Origin: a virus
Length of the DNA: 64,000 nt
IMG/VR virus record: IMGVR_UViG_3300029951_000013
Coordinates: 24,896 to 88,895 of that record
Strand: one strand, 5' to 3'
The notes below the pieces were generated by a model. It saw only the letters and a list, made by a program, of their open reading frames with translations, was not told the DNA's origin and ran no database searches. Position numbers and translations under genes: made by a program. Numbering within the stretch: the first letter of the stretch is position 1; the number at the start of each line of letters is the position of its first letter. Shown piece by piece: positions 42,889 to 46,526 of the stretch.

Positions 42889-43905
42889 CTACCAGTGCAG
42901 AACCTCGCCCGGATAGATCAGGCCCGGATCGGCGCCGATCGTCCGGGCGTTGTCGCGGTACAGCGCCTGCCAGCCGCCGGGGACGCGGTACTCCGCCGCG
43001 ATGCCGGACAGGGTGTCGCCGCGCCGGACAGTGACGGTGTGTCCGGTCGTCCTGGGCACCGGGGCAGGCTTGGACGGCTTCGAGGCCGGACTGGACGTCA
43101 GGCGCACTCCGGCCGGGCGCACGGCGTACCAGCCGCGTCCCTGGGCGTCGTAGGCGACCGTGCGCAGCCTCACCCCGGTGGACGGGTTCTCCGCCACCAC
43201 GACGTCCCCGTGGCCGATGTACAGGGCCACATGGCTGCCGTTCGTGTAGACGATGATGTCCCCGGCGGCCAGGGCGGCGCGCGGCAGGCGGGCGTCGGCG
43301 GACGAAGTGCGGGGCACAGCAACGCCTGCGGCCCGCCAAGCGGCCTGGACGAGGCCGGAGCAGTCGAAGGCTCGTGGCCCTTCGTCACCGTAGCCGTACG
43401 CCGTGCCAACCTGGGCCAGGGCATAGTCCACGGCCCGGCTGGCGGAGACGCTGCGCACGGCCGCTGTCTCCCGGACTGCGGCGTGGACCACCGGGGACGC
43501 CTGGACTACGGCGGGCGCTGAGCCTGCGTCACCCCGGCTGAGTCCGGCGCGCGGTCCGCAGACAGGCCACGCGCCGGGGCCCTGCGCCGACAGTACCCGG
43601 TTGGCGACAGCGATCTGGGCCGATTCCGAAGCCCCGCTGGCGGTGGCGGCGTAGGCCCGGCCACCGTAAGCGTCCCAGGTGGAGGCGGAGAACTGGAGGC
43701 CGCCGTAGTAGCCGTTCCCGGTGTCGGCCGACCAGTTGCCACTGGACTCGCAGGCGGCGACCCGGTCCCAGACCGAGGAGTCGGCGGCACGGGCGGGCAC
43801 CGCGAAGGCGGCGATCCCGGCGGCGCACAGGGCCCCGGCGGTGAGCAGTCGTGCGGTTGTGCGCGGTACGGAAGTGCGTCCTTGGGGCGTGCGAACAGCA
43901 GCCAC
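42889..43905 (-). CDS. Secreted Rpf / NlpC-P60 / LysM muralytic enzyme
   Basis: 338 residues; GTG at 43905 with GAAGGACCGATT upstream. A Sec signal peptide ends at ARA-ADSS (about residue 40). Resuscitation-promoting-factor domain 41-85 has the catalytic Glu53 in ACESSGNW and [12 protein letters not shown]. NlpC/P60 domain 157-265: Cys182 in FDCSGL, His225 in SHVALY, and Asn240. LysM 289-337 ([18 protein letters not shown]). It would be exported, bind peptidoglycan and cut both glycan and stem peptide. This differs from the cytosolic GH25 endolysin and resembles host growth/germination enzymes. Confidence 0.9.
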
Positions 43906-44064
43906 AATCGGTCCTTCGGTAGGCGGTCCCCCCGACATGGGGGCGGACGCTACCCACACGATCCACTGCGTTGCAAGGAGTTCTCGATCGGTACCCCATG
44001 CGGAGTCCGGGATTCCGCCATCGGTCGCTGTCAAGGTCGACCGGAGCCGGCTACGGCATCGCCG

Positions 44065-44112
44065 CTGCTCACTGCCCCCTTGGTACCTCCTCGCCGGGGA
44101 GGCAGTGAGCAG
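44065..44112 (-). terminator. Stem-loop after modification cassette
   Basis: CTGCTCACTGCC (44065-44076) and GGCAGTGAGCAG (44101-44112) form a 12-bp stem with 24-base loop, 27 bases past the CoA-transferase stop. Position suggests transcription termination or mRNA stabilisation for the leftward operon. No T tract follows. The remaining bases to 43906 hold a TTGACA (minus strand, near 44036) without a clear -10. Confidence 0.45.
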
Positions 44113-44138
44113 CAGTGGCCGGAGAGGCAGGGACCAAT

Positions 44139-44831
44139 TCAGATCGTGTACCGCCCACCATCGTTCCGCAGGTTCGCCCGGCGCCACGCGGCGTCCCGGA
44201 ACGGCTCGGCGATGACCTCGCCGCGGTACTCCACCCGGACGCCGTCACCGTCCCGGCCGTAGGTGCCCGGGTCGTCCCAGGGGGTCGCCGCACCGTCCCG
44301 GACGGCGGGCACCACGTCCTCCCCCTCGACCAGCTTCGCCAGCGCCGCGGCCTGCCGGACGACGAAGTGCCCGGGCCCGTCCACGGCCATCGCCTTGAAG
44401 GCCAGCCAGAGCCCGGCCGTGGTGTCGCCGATGTACACCGGGACGTAGCCGACGTGGTCTCCCCAGGCCCGCGCCTGCGCCACGGCATCGAAGGACCGGC
44501 CGTCGAAGTCGTCCCGCAGAGAGACCCAGCGCACCCCGAGCCGCTTGGCCTCCACCGCCGGGTCGATGCCCCAGGAGTCCCAGGTGGCCGCACGTATGTT
44601 GTCCACCACCACGTCGTAGGCGCCGGGCGGCAGCGAGGCCACCTCCAGGGCGTGCCTGGTCATGACCCGTTTCTGCCAGTTGAGCCAGTCCCACAGCAGC
44701 TCGCCGTCGGCGAGGCCCTGCACCGGGTCGGCCCGCTCGCCGACCCACTTCTCCACTTCGTGGCCCTGCTCAGCCAGGAGCATCCCGCAGTAGGCGGGGG
44801 CCAGGTACACCCCGAGTTCGAGGATCTTCAC
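44139..44831 (-). CDS. Class III CoA-transferase-like protein
   Basis: 230 residues from a GTG overlapping the Mom-fusion stop (GTGA). N-terminus [21 protein letters not shown] and [19 protein letters not shown] match the CaiB/BaiF (formyl-CoA transferase) fold, and [17 protein letters not shown] aligns with the region of the catalytic Asp, here Asp136. The family is usually about 400 residues, so this is a half-length form. In the cassette it could activate or supply the acyl group used by the Mom-like enzyme; that link is inference. Confidence 0.7.
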
Positions 44832-45922
44832 GGTGCCGCCTTGGGTGCGGTGTACTCGAAGGACCGGGTGGTCAACCGGCGCGGGTTCAACTGCGCGGCA
44901 CGTAGGCCCCGATCCCTGGTGGTGGTCTGGAGCCGCCCGCCTGCGGAGGTGTCCCGCCAGCGCGGCGACTGCTGGTAGTAGTGGATCATCGCCGGGTGGG
45001 CGACCACGTTCCGGTACCGGTAGTTCCGGTCCCACAGGTACTGGCCCAGCCAGTCGTCCAGCCGGCCGCCGATGCCCAGGCCCTGGTAGTCAGGCAGGAC
45101 GACCAGCCGGTGGCCCATCTTGATGTTCCTGGTCTGAGCGTGCGGGAAGTGCCGGTAGCTGGTGAAGGCGACCAGGTCGTCCCCGAGGAAGCCGCCGAAG
45201 CACTTCGCGCCGGTAGCGAGGGACCCGCTCAGATAGTGATGCGGGCGAAACAGGGGCCAGACGGAACGATCGACCTGGTGGACGCGGAGGTCCAGGTGTG
45301 GCCGGGATGGAACCGACCCCCAGGTGAGCGTATCCGTGGGCACCTCGTAGACCCAGTCCGGCTGGAGCCACTCGGCGATGTCGTAGTGGCAGGACACGGC
45401 GACGAACCGGCGCCCGCTGCGCCGCACGGCCTTCTGGACGGTGTGGCTGGCCACCTTGGCCACCTGGCGGTCCACCACCGAGGTGAACTCATCGATCACC
45501 ACCAGGCCGTCGGCCTCGGCGAGTGCCCGGGCTATGTCGGCGCGGAACTGCTCCCCGTTGGACAGGGTCCCGTGCGGCCGGAGCCAGACCGGCACCGAGC
45601 CGAGGCCCACCGAGCCGAGCAGCCCGGTGATGTCCTTGATGCCCATCCCGGCCGGGAAGTCGTCCACCAGGGACCGGTCCGAGGACCAGCGGTGGCCCTG
45701 GCTGTAGGCGTCCGGCCACAGGGCCCGGGCCACCGACGACTTCCCGGAGCCGGACGGGCCGACCACCAGGCCGACCGCCCAATCCCGGTCCTCGACCGGC
45801 AGGTGGACGTCCCAGGAGTTGGTCGCCTTCTCCTCGACCGTGACGTCCATCAGGGAGCTGATCTGGGCCAGCCGGGAGGACCCCCGGACCGGGGAGCTGA
45901 CCTCTACGCGCATCTCGGGCAC
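44828..45922 (-). CDS. ABC ATPase fused to Mom-like GNAT acyltransferase
   Basis: 364 residues, GTG with GAGGGGG upstream. Residues 40-190 are an ABC-type ATPase: Walker A GPSGSGKSS (55-63), signature LSNGEQ (120-125), Walker B VVIDEF (141-146), H-loop His179. Residues 205-345 resemble phage Mu Mom: FRPHHYLSGSLATG (226-238) and the GNAT acyl-CoA site RLVVLPDYQGLGIGGRL (272-288). Mom converts adenine to a carbamoylmethyl derivative and protects phage DNA from restriction. The fusion couples ATP-driven DNA remodelling with base modification. Confidence 0.8.
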   Translation of the reverse strand: MPEMRVEVSSPVRGSSRLAQISSLMDVTVEEKATNSWDVHLPVEDRDWAVGLVVGPSGSGKSSVARALWPDAYSQGHRWSSDRSLVDDFPAGMGIKDITGLLGSVGLGSVPVWLRPHGTLSNGEQFRADIARALAEADGLVVIDEFTSVVDRQVAKVASHTVQKAVRRSGRRFVAVSCHYDIAEWLQPDWVYEVPTDTLTWGSVPSRPHLDLRVHQVDRSVWPLFRPHHYLSGSLATGAKCFGGFLGDDLVAFTSYRHFPHAQTRNIKMGHRLVVLPDYQGLGIGGRLDDWLGQYLWDRNYRYRNVVAHPAMIHYYQQSPRWRDTSAGGRLQTTTRDRGLRAAQLNPRRLTTRSFEYTAPKAAP

Positions 45923-45932
45923 GGCCGCCCCC

Positions 45933-46526
45933 TCAGGTGATCAGAGCGCGGACCCGCAGGCCCTCGGCGGCGAACCGGTCCAGCAGACCGGCCTGCTCGG
46001 CCTCGTCGGCGCAGTCCACCACCAAGGCCCAGGTGCCAGGGACGGCCTCGACCGCGGCGTCGCCGGCGGGAGGCATCGCCTCGTCCTGGCCGAGCAGCTT
46101 GGCCAGGTCCTCGTCCGTGTACCCGGTGCCGTAGAGCACCTGGCCGTCCGAGGCGGCGTCGGCCTCGGCCGCAGCGGTGAGCAGGTCGGCCAGGGCCTGC
46201 TGGTCGTACCCCCCGGCGTCCGAGGTGCGGTTGTCGGCGAGATTTACACGCCGCGCGGTGTCGTCGTCGCACTCGACCAGCTCACAGCGGACGGTGGTGT
46301 GGCGCTCGGCCGCCATGGCCCGCATCGTGTGGTTCCCGGCGAGCACGGTCAGCACCGGCTTCGCCTTGGCGGTGCCGCCCGGCATCCGGCGGACCACCAG
46401 GGAGCGGTACTGGCCGTTGCGGCGGAGCGATTCCCGGATCAGGGCGACGTCGCCGCGCTTGGCGTTTCCGGGGTAGGGCGTCAGATCCTTGATCGGGACG
46501 TCCTCCACCCCCAAGTGAGTGATCAT
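45933..46526 (-). CDS. ParB/sulfiredoxin-fold protein
   Basis: 197 residues; ATG with GGGAG upstream. ParB-like N-terminal domain: IKDLTPYPGNAKRGD, IRESLRRNGQYRSLVVRR, and VLAGNHTMRAMAAE, where the GNHTMRA box is the family nucleotide-binding or catalytic element. The C-terminal half lacks the helix-turn-helix of chromosomal ParB. Stand-alone ParB folds are known in phage DNA-modification loci; no ParA gene is near. It is followed by the Mom fusion and transferase. Confidence 0.85.
   Translation of the reverse strand: MITHLGVEDVPIKDLTPYPGNAKRGDVALIRESLRRNGQYRSLVVRRMPGGTAKAKPVLTVLAGNHTMRAMAAERHTTVRCELVECDDDTARRVNLADNRTSDAGGYDQQALADLLTAAAEADAASDGQVLYGTGYTDEDLAKLLGQDEAMPPAGDAAVEAVPGTWALVVDCADEAEQAGLLDRFAAEGLRVRALIT

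What the first reader, a model, noticed from the sequence alone, without database searches (positions are those of the whole stretch)
44139..46526. ParB-like / ABC ATPase-Mom fusion / CoA-transferase cassette, a probable DNA hypermodification system
Three adjacent same-strand genes. The middle one joins a complete ABC-type ATPase (Walker A, LSNGEQ signature, Walker B, H-loop) to a Mom-like GNAT domain; Mom is known to modify adenine in phage Mu DNA. ParB folds have been linked to phage modification loci by comparative genomics. The third gene keeps the catalytic Asp region of class III CoA-transferases (YIGDTTAG), suggesting a dedicated acyl donor supply, a component I do not associate with classical Mom.
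Basis: partly seen in the sequence, partly recalled or inferred. Interest (0 to 1): 0.9.

Follow-up and report, generated by a model that had tools for sequence, protein, structure and literature searches.

The report
Phage DNA-acylation operon with donor-making enzyme
This phage carries a three-gene operon that probably attaches a small acyl group, most likely one built from beta-alanine, to bases of its own DNA, and it includes a dedicated enzyme to prepare that group; the core was predicted before, but the donor-making part appears new and can be tested directly in an isolated phage.

Summary
In detail: three tightly packed minus-strand genes encode a ParB-fold protein (46526-45933), a fused ABC ATPase-GNAT (45922-44828) and a 230-aa class III CoA-transferase-like protein, CoA-T (44831-44139). 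The ParB + ABC-GNAT core is a widespread phage module already predicted to acylate DNA bases. Its GNAT is not a member of the Mom family. What looks new is the third gene. In 17 of 21 non-redundant loci found with CoA-T alone as query, CoA-T sits beside ABC-GNAT, usually with a complete aspartate 1-decarboxylase (PanD) between them. PanD never occurs there without CoA-T. Three actinobacterial chromosomes instead pair CoA-T with an unrelated PLP decarboxylase and an aminobutyraldehyde-dehydrogenase-like enzyme, so its substrate is probably an omega-amino acid. A three-residue GNAT signature (D/E289, N305, Y316; present in the window) tracks CoA-T, including in hold-out loci (3/3 against 0/81). 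Best model: CoA-T makes beta-alanyl-CoA, from host beta-alanine in this phage, and ABC-GNAT, guided by ParB, transfers it to DNA bases. The acylated target and the acyl group are inferred, not shown. The isolated phage Jace carries the full four-gene set, so LC-MS of its DNA would decide.

The parts
45933..46526 (-). ParB-fold protein, 197 aa (GNHTMR motif within 46314-46343)
   Evidence: phrog_723 ParB-like E=8e-42; ParB homologues immediately upstream of ABC-GNAT in most relatives with enough flank; no Pfam ParB_N hit for the window protein
44828..45922 (-). ABC ATPase-GNAT fusion, 364 aa
   Evidence: phrog_11143 full length E=6e-103; Pfam ABC_tran and Acetyltransf_1 above cut-off; AF2 pLDDT 94.5; Foldseek ABC ATPases
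45380..45760 (-). ABC ATPase motifs: Walker A 45737-45760, signature LSNGEQ 45548-45565, Walker B 45488-45502, D-loop 45464-45481, H-loop 45380-45391
   Evidence: coordinates; near-invariant in 105 relatives
44975..45241 (-). GNAT core: HHYLS 45227-45241, CoA-pyrophosphate loop QGLGIG within 45068-45088, beta5-alpha4 segment RNVVAHPAMIHYY 44975-45013
   Evidence: conservation
45056..45058 (-). D289 of the CoA-T-tracking signature D/E289-N305-Y316 (N305 at 45008-45010, Y316 at 44975-44977)
   Evidence: 17/21 CoA-T-linked vs 0/78 unlinked for D/E289; Y316 19/21 vs 2/78; N305 19/21 vs 6/78; hold-out 3/3 vs 0/81 with all three
44139..44831 (-). short class III CoA-transferase-like protein (CoA-T), 230 aa
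   Evidence: PF02515 E=1.2e-4 for the window protein, 26/28 family members match, best 8e-14; AF2 pLDDT 88, top Foldseek hits all class III CoA-transferases or their AMACR relatives
44424..44426 (-). D136 in YIGDTTAG, candidate catalytic aspartate of CoA-T
   Evidence: invariant in 28/28 relatives; Pfam CoA_transf_3 matches of relatives run through this segment (to model position 177-179)

Best explanation
The operon is a phage DNA-base acylation module with its own acyl-donor supply. (1) CoA-T, a minimal class III CoA-transferase using D136, moves CoA from a host acyl-CoA onto an omega-amino acid, most likely beta-alanine, giving beta-alanyl-CoA. In most relatives a phage PanD makes the beta-alanine from aspartate; in the window phage the host PanD must supply it. 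(2) The GNAT half of the ABC-GNAT fusion binds this acyl-CoA and transfers the beta-alanyl group to an exocyclic amino group of a DNA base (N6 of A or N4 of C, undecided). N305, Y316 (the usual GNAT alpha4 tyrosine that protonates the leaving thiolate) and the acidic residue 289 tune this active site, 289 perhaps by pairing with the donor's ammonium group. (3) The ABC half, expected to dimerise on ATP, powers DNA loading or base exposure, and the ParB-fold protein recruits or positions the machine on DNA. (4) The modified DNA resists host restriction. Shown here: gene content, folds, motif conservation, linkage, and covariation of the GNAT signature with CoA-T. Inferred: the substrate identity, DNA as the target, the roles of ATP and ParB, and the anti-restriction benefit.
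For: Linkage found with CoA-T as the query: 17 of 21 non-redundant CoA-T loci hold ABC-GNAT close by on the same strand, nearly all with ParB; one exception lies at a contig end and three are chromosomal. PanD lies with CoA-T in 15 of 24 non-redundant loci and in no locus without CoA-T. The phage PanDs keep K9, Y22, the G24-S25 cleavage site, R54, T57, Y58 and N72 (E. coli numbering) in all scorable copies, and PanD of Jace matches solved PanDs at E=4.5e-22. Chromosomal CoA-T in three actinobacteria lies between a GAD-like PLP decarboxylase and an aminobutyraldehyde-dehydrogenase-like enzyme, a second, unrelated route to omega-amino acids. CoA-T fold and Asp. CoA-T-linked GNATs carry D/E289, N305 and Y316, confirmed in loci not used to find it; the window has all three. 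CoA-T-linked ABC-GNATs lie almost wholly in one part of the tree. Beta-alanyl-CoA made by a CoA-transferase has precedent (PMC4619459). ABC-GNAT as a DNA acylator was predicted before (PMC7824862). ParB also sits directly before a Mom homologue in phage Appa.
Against: No modified base has been measured. PanD is absent from the window record and from several other CoA-T phages, so beta-alanine is inferred from relatives. CoA-T lacks roughly the second half of a normal class III CoA-transferase (230 against about 400 aa), so it may not act alone or may not be a transferase. The chromosomal partners would fit GABA as well as beta-alanine. Signature positions were first chosen post hoc; the tree-independent tests are only p about 0.016-0.03 for 8 pairs, and one CoA-T+PanD locus (L165) lacks the signature. 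One signature-like protein (L215: E, N, M) has no CoA-T in a 107-kb record. Nothing here proves that DNA rather than RNA or protein is the target.
Confidence: 0.48

Rival explanations
1. The operon acylates DNA as above, but the acyl group is not beta-alanyl: CoA-T activates another acid (for example 4-aminobutyrate or another decarboxylation product) or uses a host acyl-CoA directly.
For: Chromosomal CoA-T neighbours are GAD-like and aminobutyraldehyde-dehydrogenase-like, which would give GABA. The phage PanDs carry an invariant Trp next to R54, which might mark a changed substrate.
Against: The phage PanDs keep every catalytic residue of aspartate 1-decarboxylase, including R54, and match solved PanDs closely.
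Confidence: 0.2
2. PanD and CoA-T are auxiliary metabolic genes that raise the general CoA or acyl-CoA pool; the GNAT uses ordinary acetyl-CoA.
For: PanD makes the beta-alanine needed for pantothenate and CoA (established pathway; PMC4537548 abstract).
Against: PanD never occurs in these loci without CoA-T, whereas CoA-T occurs without PanD. GNAT residues 289, 305 and 316 change with the presence of CoA-T, which a pool effect would not require. CoA-T is not part of CoA synthesis.
Confidence: 0.1
3. The ABC-GNAT machine acylates RNA or protein (host RNA polymerase, tRNA, ribosome) rather than DNA.
For: Most GNATs act on small molecules or proteins. TmcA, which makes N4-acetylcytidine in tRNA, also joins an ATPase to a GNAT (own knowledge). 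Phage GNATs acting on RNA polymerase are known (PMC7824862).
Against: The ParB-fold partner, a ParB partner of a Mom homologue in phage Appa, and frequent placement next to terminase genes favour DNA. ASCH proteins, a fold proposed to read or remove acylated bases, sit at the end of some operons.
Confidence: 0.14
4. One reading: a Mom-type system that makes the phage Mu adenine modification with help from an acyl donor gene.
For: Both are GNATs linked to ParB in some phages. A short HHYLS/HYS segment aligns.
Against: No PF25680 match and low profile-profile probability. The annotated genes around Mom in phage Mu and in the six other phages viewed include neither ABC ATPase nor CoA-T.
Confidence: 0.05
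5. CoA-T is a pseudo-enzyme or regulatory CoA binder derived from a class III CoA-transferase.
For: It is missing the C-terminal half of the family chain; the Foldseek alignments cover only part of the targets.
Against: D136, E169, E171 and other polar residues are invariant across 28 proteins as far apart as 40% identity, and its neighbours make acids that a CoA-transferase could use.
Confidence: 0.1

Closest known systems
Predicted ABC ATPase-GNAT phage DNA-acylation system (earlier work of the Aravind group, described in PMC7824862)
   Same: ABC ATPase coupled with GNAT in phage genomes, predicted to add an uncharacterised acyl group to a DNA base. Tenacibaculum phage pT24, which that paper names as carrying the system, was also hit with the window protein.
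   Different: The CoA-T, PanD and formyltransferase partner genes and the signature that tracks CoA-T are not mentioned in the passages I read. The original 2013 paper was not available, so earlier mention cannot be excluded.
Phage Mu Mom (PF25680)
   Same: GNAT-superfamily enzyme in phage DNA modification; a ParB-like gene precedes a Mom homologue in phage Appa.
   Different: Separate family by profile; no ABC domain; no donor-making gene in the loci seen.
Class III CoA-transferases (Frc, CaiB, YfdW, Rv3272)
   Same: Fold, N-terminal motif VxxDNxR, catalytic-Asp segment.
   Different: 230 aa instead of about 400; encoded in phage operons beside PanD and ABC-GNAT.
Aspartate 1-decarboxylase PanD (PF02261) in relatives
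   Same: All active-site residues and the self-cleavage site.
   Different: Carried between ABC-GNAT and CoA-T in phages; absent from the window record.
TmcA/NAT10 N4-acetylcytidine enzymes (own knowledge)
   Same: Works like: ATPase coupled to GNAT for nucleobase acylation.
   Different: TmcA has a helicase-like ATPase and acts on RNA; no homology is claimed.

Membership tests
Predicted ABC-GNAT DNA-modification family | ABC ATPase and GNAT in one protein, full-length family match | tested here: met
   phrog_11143 4-360, E=6e-103; Pfam ABC_tran and Acetyltransf_1; model
Predicted ABC-GNAT DNA-modification family | ParB-fold partner gene | tested here: met
   ParB immediately upstream in the window and in most relatives with flank
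Predicted ABC-GNAT DNA-modification family | acyl group on a DNA base | not testable with these tools
   needs LC-MS of DNA
Mom (PF25680) | match to the Mom profile | tested here: not met
   no PF25680 hit at E<=1, whereas Mu Mom hits at 2e-75
Mom (PF25680) | profile-profile similarity over the GNAT domain | tested here: not met
   hhalign probability 20%, 49 columns
Mom (PF25680) | N6-adenine modification | not testable with these tools
   needs nucleoside analysis
Class III CoA-transferase (PF02515) | family profile match | tested here: met
   26 of 28 members at E<=1e-3, best 8e-14; the window protein itself 21.8 bits, just under the 23.3 cut-off
Class III CoA-transferase (PF02515) | fold | tested here: met
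   all 50 listed Foldseek PDB hits are class III CoA-transferases or their AMACR relatives, best E=6e-8
Class III CoA-transferase (PF02515) | catalytic aspartate | tested here: met
   D136 invariant in 28/28; Pfam alignments of relatives cover the segment; the residue-by-residue match to Frc Asp169 was not printed
Class III CoA-transferase (PF02515) | full-length two-domain chain of about 400 aa | tested here: not met
   213-241 aa throughout the family; called CoA-transferase-like for this reason
Class III CoA-transferase (PF02515) | CoA transfer activity | not testable with these tools
   needs enzyme assay
ABC ATPase | Walker A, signature, Walker B, H-loop and NBD fold | tested here: met
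ParB/Srx fold | Pfam ParB_N match | tested here: inconclusive
   none for the window protein; Jace homologue 25.4 bits, under the 26.3 cut-off; PHROGs ParB match strong
PanD (in relatives, not in the window) | active-site and self-cleavage residues | tested here: met
   17 sequences, all key positions conserved

The most novel reading that the evidence does not exclude
Phages of this lineage carry beta-alanyl (or another omega-aminoacyl) nucleobases, a kind of DNA modification not known to me. They make the acyl-CoA donor with a dedicated decarboxylase and a minimal CoA-transferase, and other branches of the same ABC-GNAT family swap that supply gene for a formyltransferase-like one, giving an interchangeable donor slot with matching GNAT residues.
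Probability: 0.38. Interest if true: 0.87.

Novelty: new variant of a known kind. Interest (0 to 1): 0.72.

Why it matters
Hundreds of phage contigs carry ABC-GNAT genes whose acyl group has been unknown since they were predicted. The linked CoA-T and PanD genes give a concrete chemical candidate, with an exact mass to look for and an isolated phage (Jace) in which to look. If right, it adds a new class of hypermodified base, explains how a phage secures an unusual acyl donor, and yields an enzyme set for placing a primary amine on DNA. The matching GNAT signature also allows sequence-based prediction of which ABC-GNAT systems use this donor.

Tried and rejected
CoA-T single-sequence search of viral contigs failed because its patterns were too specific; the four-sequence alignment worked. 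Mom membership was tested and rejected. PanD, ASCH and Pfam ParB_N were searched in the window's own record: none found. CoA-T or PanD elsewhere in the genomes of CoA-T-clade ABC-GNAT phages that lack them beside the gene: none found. Clustering of neighbours gave mainly what look like terminase, portal and small-terminase genes plus antisense shadow ORFs. ASCH as a proven N4-acylcytosine deacylase was considered: YqfB needs Lys21 and Thr24, but the one phage ASCH protein I compared by eye reads GGKDVENR (Glu in place of Thr), so I do not claim deacylase activity and do not use it to choose cytosine. Literature searches for PanD or CoA-T with phage DNA modification found nothing relevant, but only open-licence papers are held and the key 2013 paper was not available. 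CoA-T in plasmids: one weak, distant hit only.

Full report
What is there. The finding lies in a 64-kb stretch of an 88.9-kb virus record. Three minus-strand genes are tightly packed: ParB-fold 46526-45933, ABC-GNAT 45922-44828 and CoA-T 44831-44139, with a 10-bp gap and then a 4-bp GTGA overlap. They follow the replication genes (primase/helicase, DNA polymerase, RuvC) and precede a cell-wall hydrolase on the same strand. A related phage contig keeps the set (L006; protein identities 58, 82 and 80%), and for ABC-GNAT and CoA-T the codon-position pattern is that of selection on protein sequence.

The core is a known predicted module. The ABC-GNAT protein matches phrog_11143 end to end. Tblastn finds relatives in 51 phage records, from Gordonia to Leptospira, Lactococcus and Tenacibaculum phages, and one scan found at least 594 viral stretches encoding relatives. 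ABC motifs are invariant or nearly so in 105 aligned relatives, the model is confident (pLDDT 94.5), and its best PDB matches are ABC ATPases. The GNAT half has the acyl-CoA loop QGLGIG and matches Pfam Acetyltransf_1. A 2021 overview of jumbo phages states that the same group had earlier identified a GNAT coupled with an ABC ATPase, predicted to make an uncharacterised acyl modification of a DNA base, with phage pT24 as an example (PMC7824862); pT24 is among the relatives found here. The earlier paper, which I take to be the group's 2013 survey, was not held.

It is not Mom. Mu Mom hits PF25680 at 2e-75; the window protein does not. Profile-profile comparison gave 20% probability over 49 columns, around HHYLS in ABC-GNAT and HYS in Mom, so a distant tie is possible but membership is not met. 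A ParB-like gene does lie directly before a Mom homologue in Microbacterium phage Appa, which supports ParB as a partner of DNA-modifying GNATs.

The third gene. CoA-T and its relatives are 213-241 aa. Pfam CoA_transf_3 matches 26 of 28. The window protein is just below the curated cut-off (21.8 against 23.3 bits). The predicted structure (pLDDT 88) matches class III CoA-transferases and their AMACR relatives in all 50 listed PDB hits. D136 of YIGDTTAG is invariant in 28 of 28 proteins, as are E169, G170 and E171. The protein lacks the C-terminal half of ordinary family members, so I call it CoA-transferase-like.

Linkage. Searching viral and cellular contigs with CoA-T alone and then looking for partners gave 21 non-redundant loci (80% identity clusters); three more came from ABC-GNAT searches. 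Of the 21, 17 carry ABC-GNAT on the same strand, nearly all with ParB. The four others are one contig end (L139) and three actinobacterial chromosomes. PanD, aspartate 1-decarboxylase, lies with CoA-T in 15 of 24 loci, usually between ABC-GNAT and CoA-T. It was never seen in these loci without CoA-T, while CoA-T occurs without PanD, as in the window. The phage PanDs keep Lys9, Tyr22, the Gly24-Ser25 cleavage site, Arg54, Thr57, Tyr58 and Asn72 in all scorable copies, so they should be working enzymes. The isolated phage Jace has the full set: gp85 ParB, gp86 ABC-GNAT, gp87 PanD, gp88 CoA-T.

An independent pointer to the substrate. In the three chromosomal loci (L156-L158) CoA-T lies between a GAD-like PLP decarboxylase (PF00282) and an aldehyde dehydrogenase nearest to aminobutyraldehyde dehydrogenase. 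Two unrelated decarboxylases next to CoA-T suggest that it activates an omega-amino acid: beta-alanine where PanD is present, possibly GABA in the chromosomes. A CoA-transferase step to beta-alanyl-CoA is known in beta-alanine degradation (PMC4619459).

GNAT residues that track CoA-T. Comparing CoA-T-linked with unlinked ABC-GNATs, three GNAT positions stand out: 289 acidic in 17 of 21 linked and 0 of 78 unlinked, Y316 in 19 of 21 and 2 of 78, N305 in 19 of 21 and 6 of 78. They were chosen post hoc. Tree-independent pairs gave p about 0.016-0.03 with at most 8 pairs, so a hold-out was made: new loci from two further scans, with near-copies of the first set removed. All three CoA-T-linked newcomers had the full signature, against none of 81 unlinked ones (Fisher about 1e-5; the test printed used 79). 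One fragment upstream of the already known L137 system was set aside; counting it gives 3 of 4. The newcomers are not phylogenetically independent of the first set, so the test shows prediction within the family, not repeated origin. By sequence position Y316 falls on helix alpha4, where GNATs keep the tyrosine that protonates the CoA thiolate (established knowledge); most unlinked relatives have Arg or another residue there. The window protein has D289, N305 and Y316. The exceptions are L165 (linked, no signature), the second copy in L143, L006 (Y316 only) and L215 (E, N, M; no CoA-T in its 107-kb record).

A second donor slot. In another, deep branch of the ABC-GNAT tree the third gene is a formyltransferase-like protein (phage NHagos gp3, Formyl_trans_N E=2e-8; nine discovery loci, and many more in the hold-out). 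There the three GNAT positions read Leu-Phe-Leu in 27 of 28. This is one clade, so it is only suggestive, but it fits an exchangeable supply gene matched to the GNAT pocket.

Model and confidence. I think CoA-T makes an omega-aminoacyl-CoA, most likely beta-alanyl-CoA, and the ABC-GNAT enzyme, with ParB, puts it on a DNA base. I give about 0.7 to DNA acylation with a CoA-T-supplied donor and 0.48 to the full beta-alanyl model. Steps shown: genes, folds, motifs, linkage, covariation. Steps inferred: substrate, target, which base, role of ATP and ParB, benefit. In the window phage the beta-alanine must come from the host.

Limits. No chemistry is available. Viral records may be incomplete. The literature held is open-licence only; whether the PanD/CoA-T link was listed before cannot be excluded.

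Noticed in passing
L003 1826-2473; L026, L030, L035, L045-L047, L051, L052 and many hold-out loci: A formyltransferase-like gene takes the third-gene slot in a deep branch of ABC-GNAT systems. It keeps H and D of the usual motif (HPSLLP, DxG) but lacks the usual Asn two residues before the His.
   Followed up: partly
L139 781-1158 (-), L140 6677-7135 (-), L136, L142, L155, L058, L014, L090: ASCH-domain proteins are found in 8 of 18 CoA-T-linked and 13 of 75 other ABC-GNAT loci, often convergent at the very end of the operon; possible readers or removers of the modification. Jace gp89 overlaps this ASCH gene but is annotated as an HTH protein.
   Followed up: partly
L156, L157, L158 (actinobacterial chromosomes): Cluster of GAD-like PLP decarboxylase, CoA-T and aminobutyraldehyde-dehydrogenase-like gene without ABC-GNAT: an unexplained cellular use of the short CoA-T.
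   Followed up: partly
L143-L149: A second ABC-GNAT follows CoA-T in the same operon and lacks the full signature (H316, A289); perhaps two different acylations in one phage.
   Followed up: no
L209 969-2121 (Microbacterium phage Appa): ParB-like gene directly followed by a Mom homologue.
   Followed up: no
L162-L166, L160 (Planctomycetes and Acidobacteriota contigs): CoA-T/PanD/ABC-GNAT sets in cellular contigs, probably prophages; several copies in one Gemmataceae genome, one of them (L166) broken.
   Followed up: no
L070 3917-4267 and other phage PanDs: Trp next to Arg54 is invariant in the phage PanDs but not in the cellular PanDs aligned; may mark altered specificity.
   Followed up: no
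window 42889-44187 (-): Protein just downstream of the operon joining a transglycosylase-like domain, an NlpC/P60-like domain and a LysM-like domain, with a likely signal peptide.
   Followed up: no
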